A stretch of 10,206 nucleotides of DNA from Candidatus Alcyoniella australis (lineage in GTDB: Bacteria > Lernaellota > Lernaellaia > JAVCCG01 > Alcyoniellaceae). Both the position numbers and the translations under genes were made by a program. The stretch spans positions 1 through 10,206 of the forward strand of contig JAVCCG010000142.1 of the NCBI GenBank assembly GCA_030765605.1. The letters run 5' to 3'. The notes under the pieces are model-generated. The model did no database searches and was not told the DNA's origin. It saw only the letters and a list, made by a program, of their open reading frames with translations. This document shows positions 1 to 10,206 of this stretch, piece after piece (position 1 is the first letter of the stretch; each line of letters starts with the position of its first letter).

Positions 1-149
1 AAACATTATGTCAACTACACGACTTCAGGCGTAATTTTCCAATCGCCGTCCGAGATTCAGTTTTCAATGAGCACCTTTATATTTTACCAGGGGATGGGGA
101 GGTGTGTCAAACGCTATCTTACATGACGGGTGAAATTTGGCGTTACAAC

Positions 150-605
150 GTAGACCCTTCACTTCGTTCAGAATGACAGCCCGCGTGCGACTGATAGCGT
201 CATATCGCATTGATATCATACGAGAAACCGTCATACTGAGGCTCAGGCGAAGGATCTACGTGCGCACGTGGAATTTGTCTATAATGGACGATTGGTGGTT
301 GTAGAAAGTAGATTCTTCACTTCGTTCAGAATGACAGCCCGCGTGCGACTGATAGCGTTATATCGCATTGATATCATACGACAAACCGTCATCCTGAGGC
401 CCTGCCGAAGGATCTACGTGCGCACGTGGAATTTGTTTATAATTGGCGCAGGGTGGTTGTAGGGCGTAGACCATTCACTTTGTTCAGGGTGACAGCCCGC
501 GCGCGACTTACAGCGCTATATCGCATTGATATCATACGACAAGCTGTCATCCTGAGGCCCCGGGCCGAAGGATCTACTTCACGTATGCTGAATTTGATGT
601 GAATT
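150..605. repeat. Left cluster: three tandem copies of a 158-bp composite palindromic repeat
   Basis: Copies begin at 150, 308 and 466, an exact 158-bp period; the third fades out near 605. Each copy has four parts: a left arm (GTAGAnCCTTCACTTCG then TTCAGnnTGACAG), a small central hairpin (ATATC-gcatt-GATAT), a right arm (TGTCATCCTGAGG then CCGAAGGATCTAC) that is an inverted version of the left arm, and a 12-bp perfect palindrome ACGTGCGCACGT (258-269 in copy 1). A conserved spacer of about 39 bp with GAATTTG and GGTGGTTGTAG joins the copies. Copy 3 has lost the 12-bp palindrome. The repeat has no coding capacity of its own; short open frames across it are by-products of its composition. It resembles dispersed intergenic palindromic repeats known from many environmental bacterial genomes, but its function is unknown. 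The stop codon of the STAND gene lies about 15 bp to the right. Confidence 0.9.
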
Positions 606-618
606 GGCGTAAAACGTC

Positions 619-2709
619 CTACAACTTGCCGCGCAGAATTTCGAGGTTGCGTTGTGCCCTCTCGACATTGGGCTTGGCTCCGATGCGCTCGAAGATCTCC
701 AGGGCCTGCTGAACTAACTTAAGTCCTTCATCCTTTTTTCCCATCTCAAAGAGTAACAAACCGATGGTGCTATAGCTCTGCCCAATGCCAAGCTGATTCC
801 CTAAACCAATCTCGATCTCGAGGCTCTGCTGGTATTGCTCCAGGGCGGCGGCGTTATCGCCACGCTTCTGATGGATCATGCCGATCTGGTGGAGGGTCCG
901 AGCAACTCCCGCCTTATCGCCAATCTCGCGTTCAATTTTGATGCTCTGCTGGTATTGCTCCAGGGCGGCGTCCAAATCGCCGCGCAGATAATGGACGTTG
1001 CCGATCTGGTGGAGGGTGCTGGCCTCTCCCTCCTTGTTGCCGATCTCGCGTTTAATTTTGATGCTCTGCTGGTATTGCTCCAGGGCGGCGTCCAAATCGC
1101 CGCGCTGCTGGAGGATCATGCCGATCTGGTGGAGGGTGATGGCTTGCTCCATTTTAGCGCCCAGCTCGTCGAATATCTCTTGCGCCTGCTGGTATTGCTC
1201 CAGTGCGGCGTCCAAATCGCCGCGCAGCTGATGGATCACACCGATCAGGTGGAGGGAGGTGGCGACGTTACGTTTATCATCTGCCTGTTCAAATATCTCC
1301 CTACATTCGTCATGCATGCGGATGGATTCCAGGTATTCGCCTTGGTTCTGTAGCATGATTGCCAGATTGCCCAGTGATGCCGCGCCATCTTTTCCCAAGC
1401 TGCGGGCGCCGCGGACTAGGTCGGGAAGCATCTGCTGGACCGAGACCAGGAAGTCGGTATCTGATATGTCTCTTTCGGCTGCAAGATCGCGGTCGATGAA
1501 CAAGGTGTACTTGGAGAGTTTTTCAGACCAGCGGTCTTGATCGGCCTTTTCCCAGATTGTCTCCCTGATCAGCGCGTGGATCGTGTAGACCTCGACTCTC
1601 TGGTAGTGCGGCACTTTCCCGCACTCGACCAGGCTGCGGCGGCAGAGGCGGTCGAGAACTGGAATGGGCTCGTCAAGCACAGCTATAAATCCGGCAGCCT
1701 CGGCAGTGAACGGCCCCTGAAAGATCGATACCGCCTCGATCAGTCGGCGCTCGTCAGCGGAGAGCGCGTCCAGGCTCAGAGATAGAGAGCCCTCAAAACT
1801 GCTGAGGCTAGGGTCTACGTTCGCAGCGTGCGCCTTGGTTATCAGGTTCCGCGCCTGTTTAACAGCCTGATCTGGTTTCAGGGATGACTCGGCCAGATAG
1901 CCGCCGATCAGGCGACAGGCTAAAGCATGGTCAGAAAGCTTGTCCGCGATCTCGGACAGCACAGCAGCCTTATAGTCCTCTTGCTTGATGGACAGTTCGT
2001 CTCGAATGACAGCCACCGCAGGCTCTCGGTCAAGGGACGGAACTTGGATAGTTTTCTCTCCGGTTAAATGCGTGGGAGCCTCTCGGGATGTGATCAGCAG
2101 GGTCGCGTTTGGACTTATTCGGTTGAGAAACCCGAGCAGCGCGTCAGCGTCAGTATCGCCGTGTTCCTGGGCGTGCAGCACGGTCTCAAAGTTGTCCAGG
2201 ATCAGCAGGCGGCGGGCATCGGCTAAGCCATTGAGCACACCAGCCTTCAGATCTTTTTCGGATAGCCCCTCTATTACACCCTTGCCCAGAAGCCGCTTAC
2301 CGATCTCGGTGAGGAAATTTTGCAGGGTTGTGTCGGTCTTGAAGCTGAAGCCCCAGACAGCGTCGAAACGGTCCTTGGCCCGCTCGGCCGCCTTGCACGC
2401 GAGCACTGACTTGCCGATGCCGCCCATGCCCAGCAGGGTCAGCACGCGATGCTCTTGCAGCAGCGCCTCGATCGCGTCCAATTCCTTTTCCCGGCCATGG
2501 AACGAGGACGTGGTGTAGATGGCGGAAAGGTCGAAGGTGGTTGGTGGTTTTGGCTCAACAACGGGAGGATCGGGTGCTAATGTCTTGGGCTCATTTTTAT
2601 CTTTATCATGGGCAAGAATATACTGCTTGCGTTCGTAGTAGAAGACTCCAATACAAGTAACAACCAAGACAGCTATACCAAGGGCTATTTGCATAATTAC
2701 CACGATCAC
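619..2709 (-). CDS. Membrane-anchored STAND NTPase: TM helix, NB-ARC domain, C-terminal TPR array
   Basis: From the GTG at 2709 the product is 696 aa. Residues 7-25 form one hydrophobic helix followed by a basic stretch (YYERKQY), which predicts a cytosolic C-terminal part. A proline-rich linker (43-57) leads to an NB-ARC-like ATPase: P-loop GMGGIGKS (94-101), Walker B LLILDNFE (168-175), a sensor-type LLITSRE (204-210) and HALACRLIGGYL (261-272) in the GLPLAL position. A winged-helix-like region follows to about 430. Residues 443-690 are TPRs of about 40-residue period with the recurring unit RGDLDAALEQYQQ. In the STAND family, nucleotide exchange after ligand sensing drives oligomerisation and effector activation, and several bacterial members are anti-phage sensors. 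Here no enzymatic effector domain is seen; the N-terminal helix is the only effector candidate. The Shine-Dalgarno-like AAGGTGAT overlaps the GTG, so the ATG at 2694 (691 aa) is the likelier start. The gene is monocistronic between two clusters of the 158-bp repeat. Domain calls are firm; biological role is inferred. Confidence 0.9.
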   Translation of the reverse strand: MIVVIMQIALGIAVLVVTCIGVFYYERKQYILAHDKDKNEPKTLAPDPPVVEPKPPTTFDLSAIYTTSSFHGREKELDAIEALLQEHRVLTLLGMGGIGKSVLACKAAERAKDRFDAVWGFSFKTDTTLQNFLTEIGKRLLGKGVIEGLSEKDLKAGVLNGLADARRLLILDNFETVLHAQEHGDTDADALLGFLNRISPNATLLITSREAPTHLTGEKTIQVPSLDREPAVAVIRDELSIKQEDYKAAVLSEIADKLSDHALACRLIGGYLAESSLKPDQAVKQARNLITKAHAANVDPSLSSFEGSLSLSLDALSADERRLIEAVSIFQGPFTAEAAGFIAVLDEPIPVLDRLCRRSLVECGKVPHYQRVEVYTIHALIRETIWEKADQDRWSEKLSKYTLFIDRDLAAERDISDTDFLVSVQQMLPDLVRGARSLGKDGAASLGNLAIMLQNQGEYLESIRMHDECREIFEQADDKRNVATSLHLIGVIHQLRGDLDAALEQYQQAQEIFDELGAKMEQAITLHQIGMILQQRGDLDAALEQYQQSIKIKREIGNKEGEASTLHQIGNVHYLRGDLDAALEQYQQSIKIEREIGDKAGVARTLHQIGMIHQKRGDNAAALEQYQQSLEIEIGLGNQLGIGQSYSTIGLLLFEMGKKDEGLKLVQQALEIFERIGAKPNVERAQRNLEILRGKL
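830..1290 (-). repeat. 120-bp in-gene tandem repeat encoding near-identical TPR units
   Basis: The same DNA block recurs with an exact 120-bp period: segments starting at 841, 961, 1081 and 1201 all read CAGnGCGGCG then nnnTTATCGC or TCCAAATCGCC, and each is preceded by CTGCTGGTATTGCTC. Each period encodes one 40-residue TPR (about residues 483-640 of the STAND protein). Conservation at the nucleotide level, including synonymous sites, indicates recent duplication or gene conversion. The array may therefore differ in copy number between strains. Confidence 0.9.
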
Positions 2710-3134: not shown

Positions 3135-4631
3135 TCACCCGCAGCAGCCCGAGTCTTTGTCGTCTACGTCCTCGTTGTCGTCCTCCCAGAATCCGTGATC
3201 ATCATCGTCATCATCATCATCGTCGATGTCATCATCGTCGATGTCATCATCATCGATGTCATCATCGTCTTCGCCGCCTTGGTCGGGCATGTAAATGGTC
3301 CCGGCAACATAGACGTGTGACTGGTCGTCAACGGTCAGCGCATTGAGGCCCATGTAGGAAAAATCTAGATTCGGCAGATAGCTTATCGTCTCGAGCAGCT
3401 CGCCGTCCGTGCTGTAACGCAGGTAACCCAGGTACTCTCCGCCGAGTATGATCAAATCGCCATCGGGAGAGAGAGAGAGAGCCGACCTTGTCAGGTAGGA
3501 GGTCTCCGGCAGATATTCAGACCATTGCAGCTCACCATCGGGATTGTATTTTACCAACGCCATACAGACATTGTTATCGTCGCTTTCACAGCAGGGACCG
3601 GTAACGTAGGCGTTGCCCTGATCGTCCAAGGCCATGGCCGATTCCTGGTTCGTGTAGTACTTCGACGAACCGCGATCCTCCCCGTTGTTTAGATAGAAAC
3701 CATCGGACCACAGCAGGTCGCCGTTGGGATCGTACTTCAAGGTGTTGCAATGTCTCTTGTCGTCCATGCCCGTGACGTAGGTGTTGCCCTGATTGTCCAC
3801 GGCGATCGCCGATCCATAATCGTTGCCTGGGCCGCTGTCGTACGTCGCGCCCCATTCCTCGACGCCGTCAGCGGAATATTTCAGCGTGATGAAACCGGTC
3901 TGGTCCGACTCGTCGATCAATAATCCGGTGAAATACAGGTTGCCCTCGTGGTCGACCGCCGCATCCTCGGGTTGACAATAATCGCCGTAGCCTTGGATGG
4001 TAGCGAGCCACTGCTGGTTGCCGGAATAATCGTATTTAACCGCCCGGCATGCTTGGCCGTATGTCCGTTGTCCAAGGGCGAAGAAGTAATCGTCAGCGTC
4101 GGCAACCAGCACCTCTCCTTTAGCACTTCGATGGTCGGGGATTGCAGTCCACAGCAGGTTGCCGTCCTGGTCGTATGAACAGGTCTCCATCCAACCCTCG
4201 TCCGAATTGCCGGTGGTGATCACGCCGCCCTGGGGTGCGGGGAGAAGATCGTAGACAAGTTCGTTTATCCAGAGCTGCCAATGGTCCCCGCCATCCGCGC
4301 TTACACTCATCAGCGACGAATTATAGTCGTTGCAGCGCGATGTAAAGCTGTTTCCGGAGCTGTCCAGGGCGAGGGAGATCTCGGAATCGTCCTCATACGA
4401 ATCACTAAAATACATGTCCCACAGCGGCTCGGGATCGCTGTTGATTAAAAACTTGGCGAGCACGAAGTAGGTTTCTCCGGGCGATGAGTCGCCCAGCGCC
4501 GGAGAGCTTAGAAGGCCAATCGCCAGGCAGATCAGCAGCAGCGCGGGAAAGAACTTCCGTGATCGCGCCCAGGATCGGGAGGCTGGTCGGATTGTACGGC
4601 GATGGCGGCTTGCGGTCCCCTCGTGCTTCAT
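3135..4631 (-). CDS. Secreted SBBP-type beta-propeller protein with Asp-rich, Cys-Cys C-terminus
   Basis: The protein has 498 aa. A GGAG ribosome-binding site lies 8 nt before the ATG at 4631. A long basic N-region (1-26) precedes a hydrophobic core FFPALLLICLAIGLL, with likely signal-peptidase cleavage after ALG (residue 47), so it is exported. The body carries repeated propeller strands of the SBBP kind: VDHEGNLYFTG (226-236), VDNQGNTYVTG (278-288), LDDQGNAYVTG (335-345) and VDDQSHVYVAG (434-444). These alternate with strands of the type LKYxxDGxxxW. Such folds usually bind or scaffold; no catalytic residues are recognisable. Residues 454-478 are almost pure aspartate in DDDDI units, then HGFWEDDNEDVDD and the terminal SGCCG. 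An acidic linker before a Gly/Cys motif recalls the part of C-terminal sorting tags such as MYXO-CTERM that precedes the membrane helix, but here no helix follows. It is the first gene after the transporter's terminator and probably a separate transcription unit. Confidence 0.82.
   Translation of the reverse strand: MKHEGTASRHRRTIRPASRSWARSRKFFPALLLICLAIGLLSSPALGDSSPGETYFVLAKFLINSDPEPLWDMYFSDSYEDDSEISLALDSSGNSFTSRCNDYNSSLMSVSADGGDHWQLWINELVYDLLPAPQGGVITTGNSDEGWMETCSYDQDGNLLWTAIPDHRSAKGEVLVADADDYFFALGQRTYGQACRAVKYDYSGNQQWLATIQGYGDYCQPEDAAVDHEGNLYFTGLLIDESDQTGFITLKYSADGVEEWGATYDSGPGNDYGSAIAVDNQGNTYVTGMDDKRHCNTLKYDPNGDLLWSDGFYLNNGEDRGSSKYYTNQESAMALDDQGNAYVTGPCCESDDNNVCMALVKYNPDGELQWSEYLPETSYLTRSALSLSPDGDLIILGGEYLGYLRYSTDGELLETISYLPNLDFSYMGLNALTVDDQSHVYVAGTIYMPDQGGEDDDDIDDDDIDDDDIDDDDDDDDDHGFWEDDNEDVDDKDSGCCG
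3225..3269 (-). repeat. 15-bp coding microsatellite in the Asp-rich tail
   Basis: Three tandem 15-bp units (3225-3239, 3240-3254, 3255-3269) of the form GATGTCATCATCGTC encode the IDDDD units of the acidic tail. More ATC/GTC triplets lie at 3198-3224. The units preserve frame, so copy-number change would lengthen or shorten the linker without breaking the protein. Confidence 0.85.
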
Positions 4632-6653: not shown

Positions 6654-8231
6654 ATGCGTGCTAAATGGACGGTTGCGCTCGCGCTGATGGTCCTGGCCGG
6701 TCTGATCGCCTGCGGATTGGGCTGTTCCGGACTGGGCGGCGACGGCGCCGACGCGGACGACGACGAGGATTACGATGACGATGAAATGAACGACGACGAC
6801 GCCAGTGACGACGACGCCAGTGGCGACGACGATTCGGGCGACGATGATTCGGCCGACGACGATGATGACATCGAACCGCCTGATCCCGAGGAAGAGAGCG
6901 ATCTGGGCCGCAAGCCGGTCTACTGCGACGGCGCACTGTACGTGCCCAATACCGGAGAGGATTACCTCAGCCGCATCGATTCCCAGACCCTGGCGGTGAC
7001 CACGATCGAGGTTGGGCGGCATCCCGAGGTATTGCGCGCCACTGATGACTGCTCGGCGCTGCTCACGCTCAACACCGGGGACGATACGCTGAGCGTGATC
7101 GATACCAACGACAACAGTGTAAGCGAGCTCGATCTTCGGCCGGGGCTCAATCGGCTCGATGCTGCTCCGGGCGCACGTTACGCTTTGGCCTATCACCACT
7201 ACGAGGGTGGCGACAAGGGCTTTTTCGAGGTCTCGATCGCCGACATCGCGGCTTCAAAGGTCAGTTCGTTGGCCATCGGCTTCTCGCCGGACTCGGTGTT
7301 GTTCACGGTCAACGATCACGCGCTGCTGGCATCGGAGGTGGATCTGGCGCTGATCGGTTTGGCGGACAGCTCGTTCGTCAGTCTGCCCAGCGGAATCAAC
7401 GTGCTTCAGGGGGAGCGCATCAGCCGAGTCAAACTCACGGCCGACGGCCGTTACGCGCTGATCATGGTCACCGGCTCGACCGTGGTACGGGCTCTGGATC
7501 TAAGCGACTACTCGATTGAGCCGATCGAGCTGGGCTGCTACGCCACGGACCTCGATGTCGCGTCCCAGGGCGATTGTTCGCTGATCATTTGTCGCGAGGA
7601 GGGCCGGATCAACGTGCTGGACAACCAGACCCTCGAGCTGACGCAATTTACCACCGACGAGGTGATCGGCTCGGGCGAGCTGACCGCCGACGGCTCGCTG
7701 GCCGTGCTGTTCACCAACGCCCAGCAGATCGAGCGCGTGCATTTGCTCGATGTGGATGCGGGCGAGCTGCGGACCTTCCTTACGCTCAAACCGCTGAGTT
7801 CGGTTGCCATTGCGCCCGGGGACACCGGCGCGGTGCTGTTCCACCAGGGCGGAGACGGCGAGCCGATCGATCCCCTTGACGAGTATTTCGACAGAGTACA
7901 GGCCTTCTCGGTCATGAACTTCGATGACGGCCGGATCAACACTGTGGAGGTGCCCCAGAAGCCCACAAGCGTCTCGTTCGACGAACTGGGGCGTTACGGC
8001 ATCGTGCCGCTGCCCACGCATAAGAAGGTCGCCTTGGCGCGAATCAGCAGCGGCATCGTCGACCTGATCAGCTCGCCCTCCAAGCCGGTGGACGCCGGAG
8101 TGATTGCCGCCGACGACTTGGCCTACGTGCTGCAGGACCACCCGCTGGGACGGATCAGTTTCGTCGACGCGACTAACCTGCAGATCCGTACGATCACCGG
8201 GTTTCTGCTCAACGGCGAGATCGAGCCCTGA
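6654..8231 (+). CDS. Lipoprotein with Asp-rich linker and beta-propeller-like domain
   Basis: The product is 525 aa, with ATG at 6654 behind AAGGGGGGTGG. The N-terminus is a lipoprotein signal peptide with lipobox LIAC; Cys20 is the likely acylated residue, although Cys24 is close by. Residues 30-72 are a disordered acidic linker (26 of 43 are Asp, in DDDAS and DDDSG units). From about residue 88 the sequence consists of repeated strand motifs typical of YVTN/WD40-like propellers: YCDGALYVPNTGEDYLSRID, LLTLNTGDDTLSVID and LTADGRYALIMVTGS. The acidic arm would hold the propeller away from the membrane. No catalytic residue is recognised, so binding or scaffolding is inferred. It is the first gene of a pair with the next gene, only 12 nt away, and the two share the same fold and order of motifs. 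Confidence 0.87.
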   Translation: MRAKWTVALALMVLAGLIACGLGCSGLGGDGADADDDEDYDDDEMNDDDASDDDASGDDDSGDDDSADDDDDIEPPDPEEESDLGRKPVYCDGALYVPNTGEDYLSRIDSQTLAVTTIEVGRHPEVLRATDDCSALLTLNTGDDTLSVIDTNDNSVSELDLRPGLNRLDAAPGARYALAYHHYEGGDKGFFEVSIADIAASKVSSLAIGFSPDSVLFTVNDHALLASEVDLALIGLADSSFVSLPSGINVLQGERISRVKLTADGRYALIMVTGSTVVRALDLSDYSIEPIELGCYATDLDVASQGDCSLIICREEGRINVLDNQTLELTQFTTDEVIGSGELTADGSLAVLFTNAQQIERVHLLDVDAGELRTFLTLKPLSSVAIAPGDTGAVLFHQGGDGEPIDPLDEYFDRVQAFSVMNFDDGRINTVEVPQKPTSVSFDELGRYGIVPLPTHKKVALARISSGIVDLISSPSKPVDAGVIAADDLAYVLQDHPLGRISFVDATNLQIRTITGFLLNGEIEP

Positions 8232-9674: not shown

Positions 9675-9684
9675 ACGCCCGGCC

Positions 9685-10085
9685 GGATAGATCGCAGGCT
9701 GCGCGGCGGCGGCTTGGAGCCGCTGCAAGGCTCGCATATTTCCCGGATCGTTTAGCGTCGATCTATGCCGCGTCGCGGAGATTATCGTCGAGCCACATGC
9801 AGGTCACGTACGCGAGTTTTGCCCCGGCTCGAAGCCGGGCGACAGCTCGTTCAGCGCGTTCTCAAAGAAGTATTGTTCATCGAGACAAAATATTCCGCAC
9901 GATTATCGGTCATAGATCGTGGCGTGGCACATGGCACCGCAAACTGAGCGCATCAGTCCACCCTCGGATGATCCGGCTTGGAGCCGGCCCGAAACTCGCG
10001 CACTGCGATTGTCTTTGAACATTGATCAATCCCGCGTCGCGGAGCGCATCGTTGGACAATGACTATGGTCCGCTCGCGTGCCTTG
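9685..10085. repeat. Degenerate intergenic repeat, about three units, with palindromic cores
   Basis: This long non-coding stretch contains CGGCTTGGAGCCG at 9710-9722 and again at 9974-9986, and CCGCGTCGCGGAG at 9768-9780 and again at 10032-10044. Both pairs have exactly the same 264-bp offset. Sequence between and after them is also similar (GATCnATnCCGCG, and a later CGCGnGnnTTG). A third, more diverged unit in the middle starts at the hairpin CCCGGCT-CGA-AGCCGGG (9823-9839). Unit length is therefore about 130-140 bp. It is unrelated to the 158-bp repeat on the left of the window. No convincing reading frame spans it. Confidence 0.55.
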
Positions 10086-10103
10086 CTGCGTATACATGAA
10101 AGA

Positions 10104-10186
10104 GGGCTGTCCTCGAGGTCTGTTTGATAAAACAGCCTCAAACGTTAAACGTGCTCATACGACACAAACTTTGAGGAGGACAGCCC
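10104..10186 (+). ncRNA. Foldable leader of the edge gene; possible structured RNA or SD-masking element
   Basis: An 11-bp perfect inverted repeat, GGGCTGTCCTC (10104-10114) and GAGGACAGCCC (10176-10186), encloses a hairpin at 10115-10139: GAGG-t-CTGTTT, loop GATA, AAACAG-CCTC, ten pairs with one bulged T. CCTCAAA (10136-10142) could instead pair with TTTGAGG (10170-10176). The right arm includes part of the Shine-Dalgarno sequence of the following ATG, so the fold would mask it. In IS110-family elements the non-coding end next to the transposase can encode a bridge RNA, and other transposons use such stems to block read-through expression. Which applies, if either, cannot be decided here. 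Confidence 0.35.
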
Positions 10187-10187
10187 A

Positions 10188-10206
10188 ATGCAACTTTACA
10201 TCGGCC
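10188..10206 (+). CDS. 5' end of a gene, probably an IS110-family transposase (cut by window edge)
   Basis: GAGGAGG (10173-10179) lies 8 nt before the ATG at 10188. Six codons are visible, MQLYIG, and the next codon begins with C. IS110-family transposases (DEDD, RuvC-like fold) typically begin with a short hydrophobic strand such as YIGLD or YIGID that carries the first catalytic Asp, and the visible residues fit that pattern with Leu next. Six residues cannot prove the family. The unusual folded leader and the repeat-rich surroundings agree with an insertion sequence. The rest of the element lies outside the window. Confidence 0.45.

What the first reader, a model, noticed from the sequence alone, without database searches (positions are those of the whole stretch)
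10104..10206. Structured leader of a possible IS110 transposase: bridge-RNA or SD-masking candidate
An 11-bp perfect inverted repeat surrounds a ten-pair hairpin with a GATA loop, offers an alternative pairing, and covers part of the transposase's ribosome-binding site. In IS110 elements the non-coding end can encode the guide RNA that joins donor and target. This leader is short, and the true left end of the element is not identified.
Basis: inference. Interest (0 to 1): 0.6.

Follow-up and report, generated by a model that had tools for sequence, protein, structure and literature searches.

The report
RBS-masking leader of REP-targeting IS110-type element
The hairpin is the start of a mobile DNA element that sits in at least seven copies of a palindromic repeat in this genome, and it most likely hides the ribosome-binding site of the element's own transposase to keep jumping rare, a trick known from one related element and seen here, by sequence, in many others.

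Summary
In detail: a perfect 11-bp inverted repeat (10104-10114 / 10176-10186) encloses a ten-pair GATA-loop hairpin and buries the Shine-Dalgarno AGGAGG (10174-10179). The fold is far stronger than shuffles (z -5.6 to -7.7). The window is a contig that breaks inside a repeated element. Seven contigs of this genome end in the same left end, each joined to the same point (TGC[T/A]GC) at the foot of a REP-like palindrome. The longest copy encodes MQLYIGLDV, an IS110-type N-terminus. The transposase body and right end are missing from the assembly. The guide-RNA reading is not supported: the left non-coding end is only ~98 nt, no Rfam family matches, and the leader shows no target complementarity above shuffles. 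SD masking is supported: predicted SD accessibility is 2% (shuffled mean 40%). In a survey, 20 of 30 elements with 325-372-aa transposases (14 of 24 without seed elements and this one) pair their start region with their own leader better than shuffles, against 2 of 57 control genes and 1 of 17 long-transposase elements. Swapping arms between elements destroys the pairing (p 2e-5). Closest precedent: ISPpu9. New member of a known kind; the breadth of the masking leader may be new.

The parts
10000..10089 (+). left half of a REP-like palindromic repeat, the interrupted target; ends ...CTCGCGTGCCTTGCTGC
   Evidence: 34 further places in the same genome match part of this stretch; those aligned run on into a short hairpin instead of the element
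9808..10003 (.). two inverted copies of the REP-like hairpin unit (31-nt arms, 84% complementary)
10088..10206 (+). left end of the mobile element, present at least 7 times in the genome
   Evidence: seven contigs break at the same place with 99-100% identical sequence
10091..10096 (+). TATACA, -10-like hexamer about 7 nt before the hairpin; possible half of a circle-junction promoter (inference)
   Evidence: sequence; junction promoters in the group are described in PMC11187229
10104..10114 (+). 5' arm of the outer stem
10115..10139 (+). inner ten-pair hairpin with GATA loop
10136..10142 (+). 5' half of the alternative pairing (CCTCAAA)
10170..10176 (+). 3' half of the alternative pairing (TTTGAGG), overlapping the SD
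10174..10179 (+). Shine-Dalgarno AGGAGG, predicted 2% unpaired
10176..10186 (+). 3' arm of the outer stem
10188..10206 (+). start of the transposase gene (MQLYIG; MQLYIGLDV in copy C136), cut by the contig end

Best explanation
This is the left end and mRNA leader of an IS110-family element (probably of the short-left-end, IS1111-like layout) that inserts at a fixed point in REP-like palindromes. In any transcript that contains the leader, whether from the joined ends of the circular form or from outside, the outer stem pairs the Shine-Dalgarno with the leader's 5' arm, so ribosomes load rarely and transposase stays scarce. If the 5' arm is absent or not yet folded, the CCUCAAA/UUUGAGG pairing still covers part of the site. 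Shown: the sequences, the seven copies, the fixed target, the predicted fold and the recurrence of the design in related elements. Inferred: the transposase type (nine residues), where transcripts start, and the effect on translation.
For: Seven identical left junctions in REP-like sites. Fold z -5.6 to -7.7. SD 2% accessible against a 40% shuffled mean, 1 of 100 shuffles as low. Of 30 leaders in the 325-372-aa group including this one, 20 pair their last 22 nt with their own upstream leader better than 95% of shuffles; 14 of 24 when the four alignment-seed elements, one near copy and this element are left out. Comparison: control genes 2/57 and long-transposase elements 1/17. Own arms beat swapped arms, p 5e-5 in the full set and 2e-5 without seeds; no such excess in long-transposase elements (p 0.15-0.19). 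Experimental precedent in ISPpu9: a leader with weakened structure gave 26 times the reporter activity (PMC8450116).
Against: No transcript or translation data for this element. Only nine residues of the protein and no right end are known. Thirty 100-nt leaders are a modest sample, start codons were chosen partly by SD, and a third of the comparable elements (including IS4321 and IS5075) show no significant excess in the pairing test. The plain SD-accessibility test was weaker than the pairing test: 10 of 33 at or below the 5th percentile, and no significant difference from 11 controls.
Confidence: 0.78

Rival explanations
1. The leader is (part of) the element's guide RNA (bridge RNA or seekRNA) that pairs with target and donor DNA.
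For: IS110-group guide RNAs lie upstream of the gene, and a 74-nt seekRNA is known (PMC11187229), so 85 nt would fit in length.
Against: Left end of only ~98 nt, as in the IS1111 layout with the RNA at the other end (PMC11208160). No Rfam match. No complementarity to the seven target flanks or to the left end beyond shuffles. The same-class element has a 332-aa gene, an ~100-nt left end, ~330 nt downstream and an 11-bp subterminal repeat.
Confidence: 0.08
2. The inverted repeat acts at the DNA level, as a transposase binding site near the left end.
For: IS1111-type elements have subterminal inverted repeats near the ends (PMC11187229).
Against: Those repeats pair left end with right end, whereas here both arms lie in the left end. 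In related elements that show the pairing the 3' arm covers the SD-to-start stretch, and the fold is strongly RNA-stable. A reverse-complement copy of the extreme left end was not found elsewhere in the assembly, but the right end itself is missing.
Confidence: 0.07
3. The hairpin is a transcription attenuator or terminator, or protects the mRNA 5' end, with SD overlap incidental.
For: The stem would stand almost at the 5' end of a transcript started from the TATACA box (inference from sequence).
Against: No U-run after the stem and no terminator call in the leader. The 3' arm tracks the SD across related elements.
Confidence: 0.05

Closest known systems
ISPpu9 of Pseudomonas putida (IS110/IS492 family; PMC8450116)
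   Same: seven copies, all at one point in REP palindromes; [quoted passage not shown]
   Different: its UTR is 244 nt and it carries antisense and sense small RNAs; here the leader is ~85 nt and no small RNA is known
IS1111-group elements (IS4321, IS5075, ISEc11; PMC11187229, PMC11208160)
   Same: short left end, site-specific insertion; related elements with 325-372-aa transposases often share the masked start region
   Different: right end, subterminal repeats and transposase of this element are not available; IS4321 and IS5075 themselves did not pass the pairing test
IS621 (IS110 group; bridge RNA in the left end)
   Same: likely the same recombinase superfamily
   Different: IS621 has a long left end with the bridge RNA; here the left end is short and no guide loops were found
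IS10/Tn10, IS50/Tn5 and IS200 transposase mRNAs
   Same: post-transcriptional limits on transposase synthesis
   Different: different transposase families; there an RNA structure, antisense RNA or Hfq is used (partly from general knowledge; Hfq and small RNAs are noted in PMC8450116)

Membership tests
IS110 family (IS110 + IS1111 groups) | DEDD (RuvC-like) transposase, PF01548 + PF02371 | not testable with these tools
   gene cut by contig end; no significant PF01548 match and no PF02371 match above cut-off in the whole assembly
IS110 family (IS110 + IS1111 groups) | N-terminus of the form M-x-(Y)-[IV]-G-[ILV]-D-V | tested here: met
   MQLYIGLDV in the longest copy; compare MFYVGLDV and MHYVGVDL in fetched IS110 transposases; only nine residues, so weak
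IS110 family (IS110 + IS1111 groups) | insertion at one specific target sequence | tested here: met
   7 of 7 left junctions at TGC[T/A]GC in a REP-like repeat; the repeat motif occurs 63 times in 1.6 Mb against 12 expected, 40 of 62 unoccupied sites followed by a hairpin
IS110 group (guide RNA in left end) | long non-coding left end carrying the guide RNA with loops matching target and donor | tested here: not met
   ~98 nt left end; no complementarity above shuffles to the left target flank or left donor end; right flank and right end unavailable
IS1111 group | short left end, long non-coding right end, 7-17 bp subterminal inverted repeats | tested here: inconclusive
   short left end met; right end not recovered
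IS1111 group | transposase of about 330-350 aa with GL-P----S(T)G motif | not testable with these tools
   gene truncated
RBS-burying transposase leader (ISPpu9-like) | 5'-UTR structure that pairs the RBS | tested here: met
   predicted only:
RBS-burying transposase leader (ISPpu9-like) | translation rises when the structure is weakened | not testable with these tools
   needs reporter fusions

The most novel reading that the evidence does not exclude
A start-site-masking stem between the left end and the Shine-Dalgarno is a group-wide, conserved feature of short-left-end (IS1111-like) elements. Its arms change together in sequence, and it sets transposase dosage against a guide RNA made from the other end. 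So far only ISPpu9 has been described with a masked RBS in the literature I could search.
Probability: 0.5. Interest if true: 0.5.

Novelty: new member of a known kind. Interest (0 to 1): 0.36.

Why it matters
IS110-family recombinases are being developed as RNA-guided DNA editors, but how the natural elements keep recombinase levels low is known for one element. If a masked start site is the rule in the short-left-end group, it would help explain low activity in place, give a simple handle for expressing them, and help tell regulatory leader structure from guide RNA when new elements are annotated.

Tried and rejected
Right end of the element: starts of 120 contigs and, for those of 20 kb or less, their ends were read (six contigs under 3 kb read as N). 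A reverse-complement left-end pattern found only the seven left ends plus weak chance sites. Transposase body: absent from the assembly. Same element in 60 other genomes: none; in plasmids: none. Exact 15-mer GAGGACAGCCCAATG in genome and viral collections: only chance hits, no IS110 start behind it; this used the one genome-contig scan. Viral-contig searches with two IS110 transposases found no relatives. First survey runs mis-sorted some transposases into controls and showed no difference; redone. SD accessibility over all IS110 leaders did not separate from 11 controls; the signal is confined to the 325-372-aa class. Partial 30-nt match in contig C134 (L035): no gene behind it, left unexplained. 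Terminator, promoter and Rfam scans: nothing convincing in the leader.

Full report
Observation. Arms: 10104-10114 and 10176-10186, 11 of 11 complementary; inner hairpin 10115-10139, ten pairs, GATA loop; SD AGGAGG 10174-10179; ATG 10188. The RNA folds to -41 kcal/mol with z -5.6 (10090-10206) or -7.7 (10104-10203), and no shuffle of 200 folds as well. When the 5' arm is removed, CCUCAAA pairs with UUUGAGG and still touches the SD, but that fold is not better than shuffles (z -0.8).

What it belongs to. The window is contig C142 of a 157-contig genome and ends inside a repeated element. Six other contigs (C56, C63, C128, C129, C136, C146) end in the same sequence, 99-100% identical over 119 nt; a pattern search finds exactly these seven left ends. 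Two copies share one substitution (A to G), which falls in a predicted loop. In all seven the element is joined to TGC[T/A]GC at the foot of a REP-like palindrome. Unoccupied copies of the repeat run on into a short hairpin such as TGCGGCTCTAAGCCGC. In 1.63 Mb of sampled sequence the motif CGCG[AT]G[CT]N[AT]TGC occurs 63 times (12 expected from base composition), and 40 of 62 unoccupied sites are followed by a hairpin; only 12 of 62 go on with [T/A]GC, as all seven occupied sites do. The genome also holds one Y1 (REP-type) transposase relative.

Which element. The longest copy reads MQLYIGLDV, the usual start of IS110-family transposases (compare MFYVGLDV, MHYVGVDL, MMYLGIDH). The rest of the gene and the right end are absent: PF01548 has no significant match and PF02371 none above cut-off, and the contig ends that were read do not contain a right end. 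This is the usual result of a short-read assembly collapsing a repeated element below the contig length limit (inference). Family membership is therefore likely but not proven.

Guide RNA or leader. IS110-group elements carry the guide RNA in a long left end, IS1111-group elements in a long right end with a short left end (PMC11208160; PMC11187229). Here the left end is about 98 nt to the ATG. A 74-nt seekRNA is known, so length alone does not exclude a guide. But neither Rfam nor a direct test for complementarity to the seven target flanks or the left donor end (all within shuffle range) gives any sign of guide loops. An element in a same-class genome (G005) serves as a comparison: about 100 nt of left end, a 332-aa transposase, about 330 nt of downstream non-coding DNA and an 11-bp subterminal repeat ATAACCGCGCG at both ends, i.e. 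the IS1111 layout. Its leader too pairs the SD (AGGCCCCTTG / CAAGGAGGCC), and two of its three inspected copies lie beside palindromes.

Is masking a rule? IS110-family loci were fetched from hundreds of other genomes and from plasmids. The first test, SD accessibility, put all four elements with 328-345-aa transposases in the lowest 2% of shuffles but did not separate all IS110 elements from controls. The four were then used as an alignment to find more, and a pairing test was applied: the last 22 nt before the start against the upstream 72 nt of the same leader. In the 325-372-aa class, counting this element, 20 of 30 leaders beat 95% of shuffles (median z -2.7), against 2 of 57 genes of the window's own genome (Mann-Whitney p 3e-8) and 1 of 17 long-transposase elements. 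Leaving out the seed elements, one near copy of a seed and this element leaves 14 of 24. Exchanging the upstream halves between elements removes the excess: own mean -17.9 against swapped -13.6 kcal/mol, p 2e-5 without seeds; p 5e-5 in the full set, 0.15-0.19 for long-transposase elements. The arms therefore differ in sequence between elements but keep their complementarity. The present element has the strongest z of the set (-6.1). Limits: the length class was chosen after seeing the first survey, start codons were picked partly by SD strength, and GC content is only partly controlled by the swap (it is controlled by the shuffles).

Mechanism. Most likely the stem throttles translation of the transposase. 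The TATACA box 7 nt before the 5' arm could be the -10 half of a promoter made when the ends join in the circle, as described for the group (PMC11187229); transcripts would then start at the hairpin. That step, and the effect on translation, are inferred. ISPpu9 provides the experimental precedent: seven copies at one point of P. putida REPs, an RBS buried in the 5'-UTR, and a 26-fold rise in reporter activity when the structure was weakened (PMC8450116). REP targeting by ISPpu9, ISPpu10, ISPa11 and others is long known (PMC1525189).

Verdict. The finding is real and is best read as an RBS-masking leader of a new REP-targeting IS110-type element, not as a guide RNA. The element itself is an ordinary new member of a known kind. 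The breadth of the masked start in the short-left-end class appears undescribed in the searchable literature (no paper; ISPpu9 only among IS110 relatives) and is the more interesting lead.

Noticed in passing
window 9680-10089: REP-like palindromic repeats in a cluster, two of them inverted (31-nt arms); the family occurs tens of times in the genome and is the target of the element
   Followed up: partly
window 144-577: three tandem copies of a ~158-nt unit with a palindrome TCTACGTGCGCACGTGGA, spacing 158; nature unknown
   Followed up: no
L035 (contig C134) 1501-1530: 30-nt, 90% match to the leader segment AAACAGCCTCAAACGTTAAACGTGCTCATA without the rest of the element; remnant or chance
   Followed up: partly
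window 619-2709 (-): NB-ARC/STAND ATPase with TPR repeats and an N-terminal membrane segment, possibly a signalling or defence protein
   Followed up: no
window 3135-4631 (-), 6654-8231 (+), L046: secreted-looking proteins with long aspartate-rich stretches (DDDDD) after the signal peptide or at the C-terminus, also seen in a same-class genome
   Followed up: no
L046, L060, L359 (genome G005): IS1111-type element (332 aa, 11-bp subterminal repeats) in several copies, two of three inspected beside short palindromes; some copies carry frameshifts or truncation
   Followed up: partly
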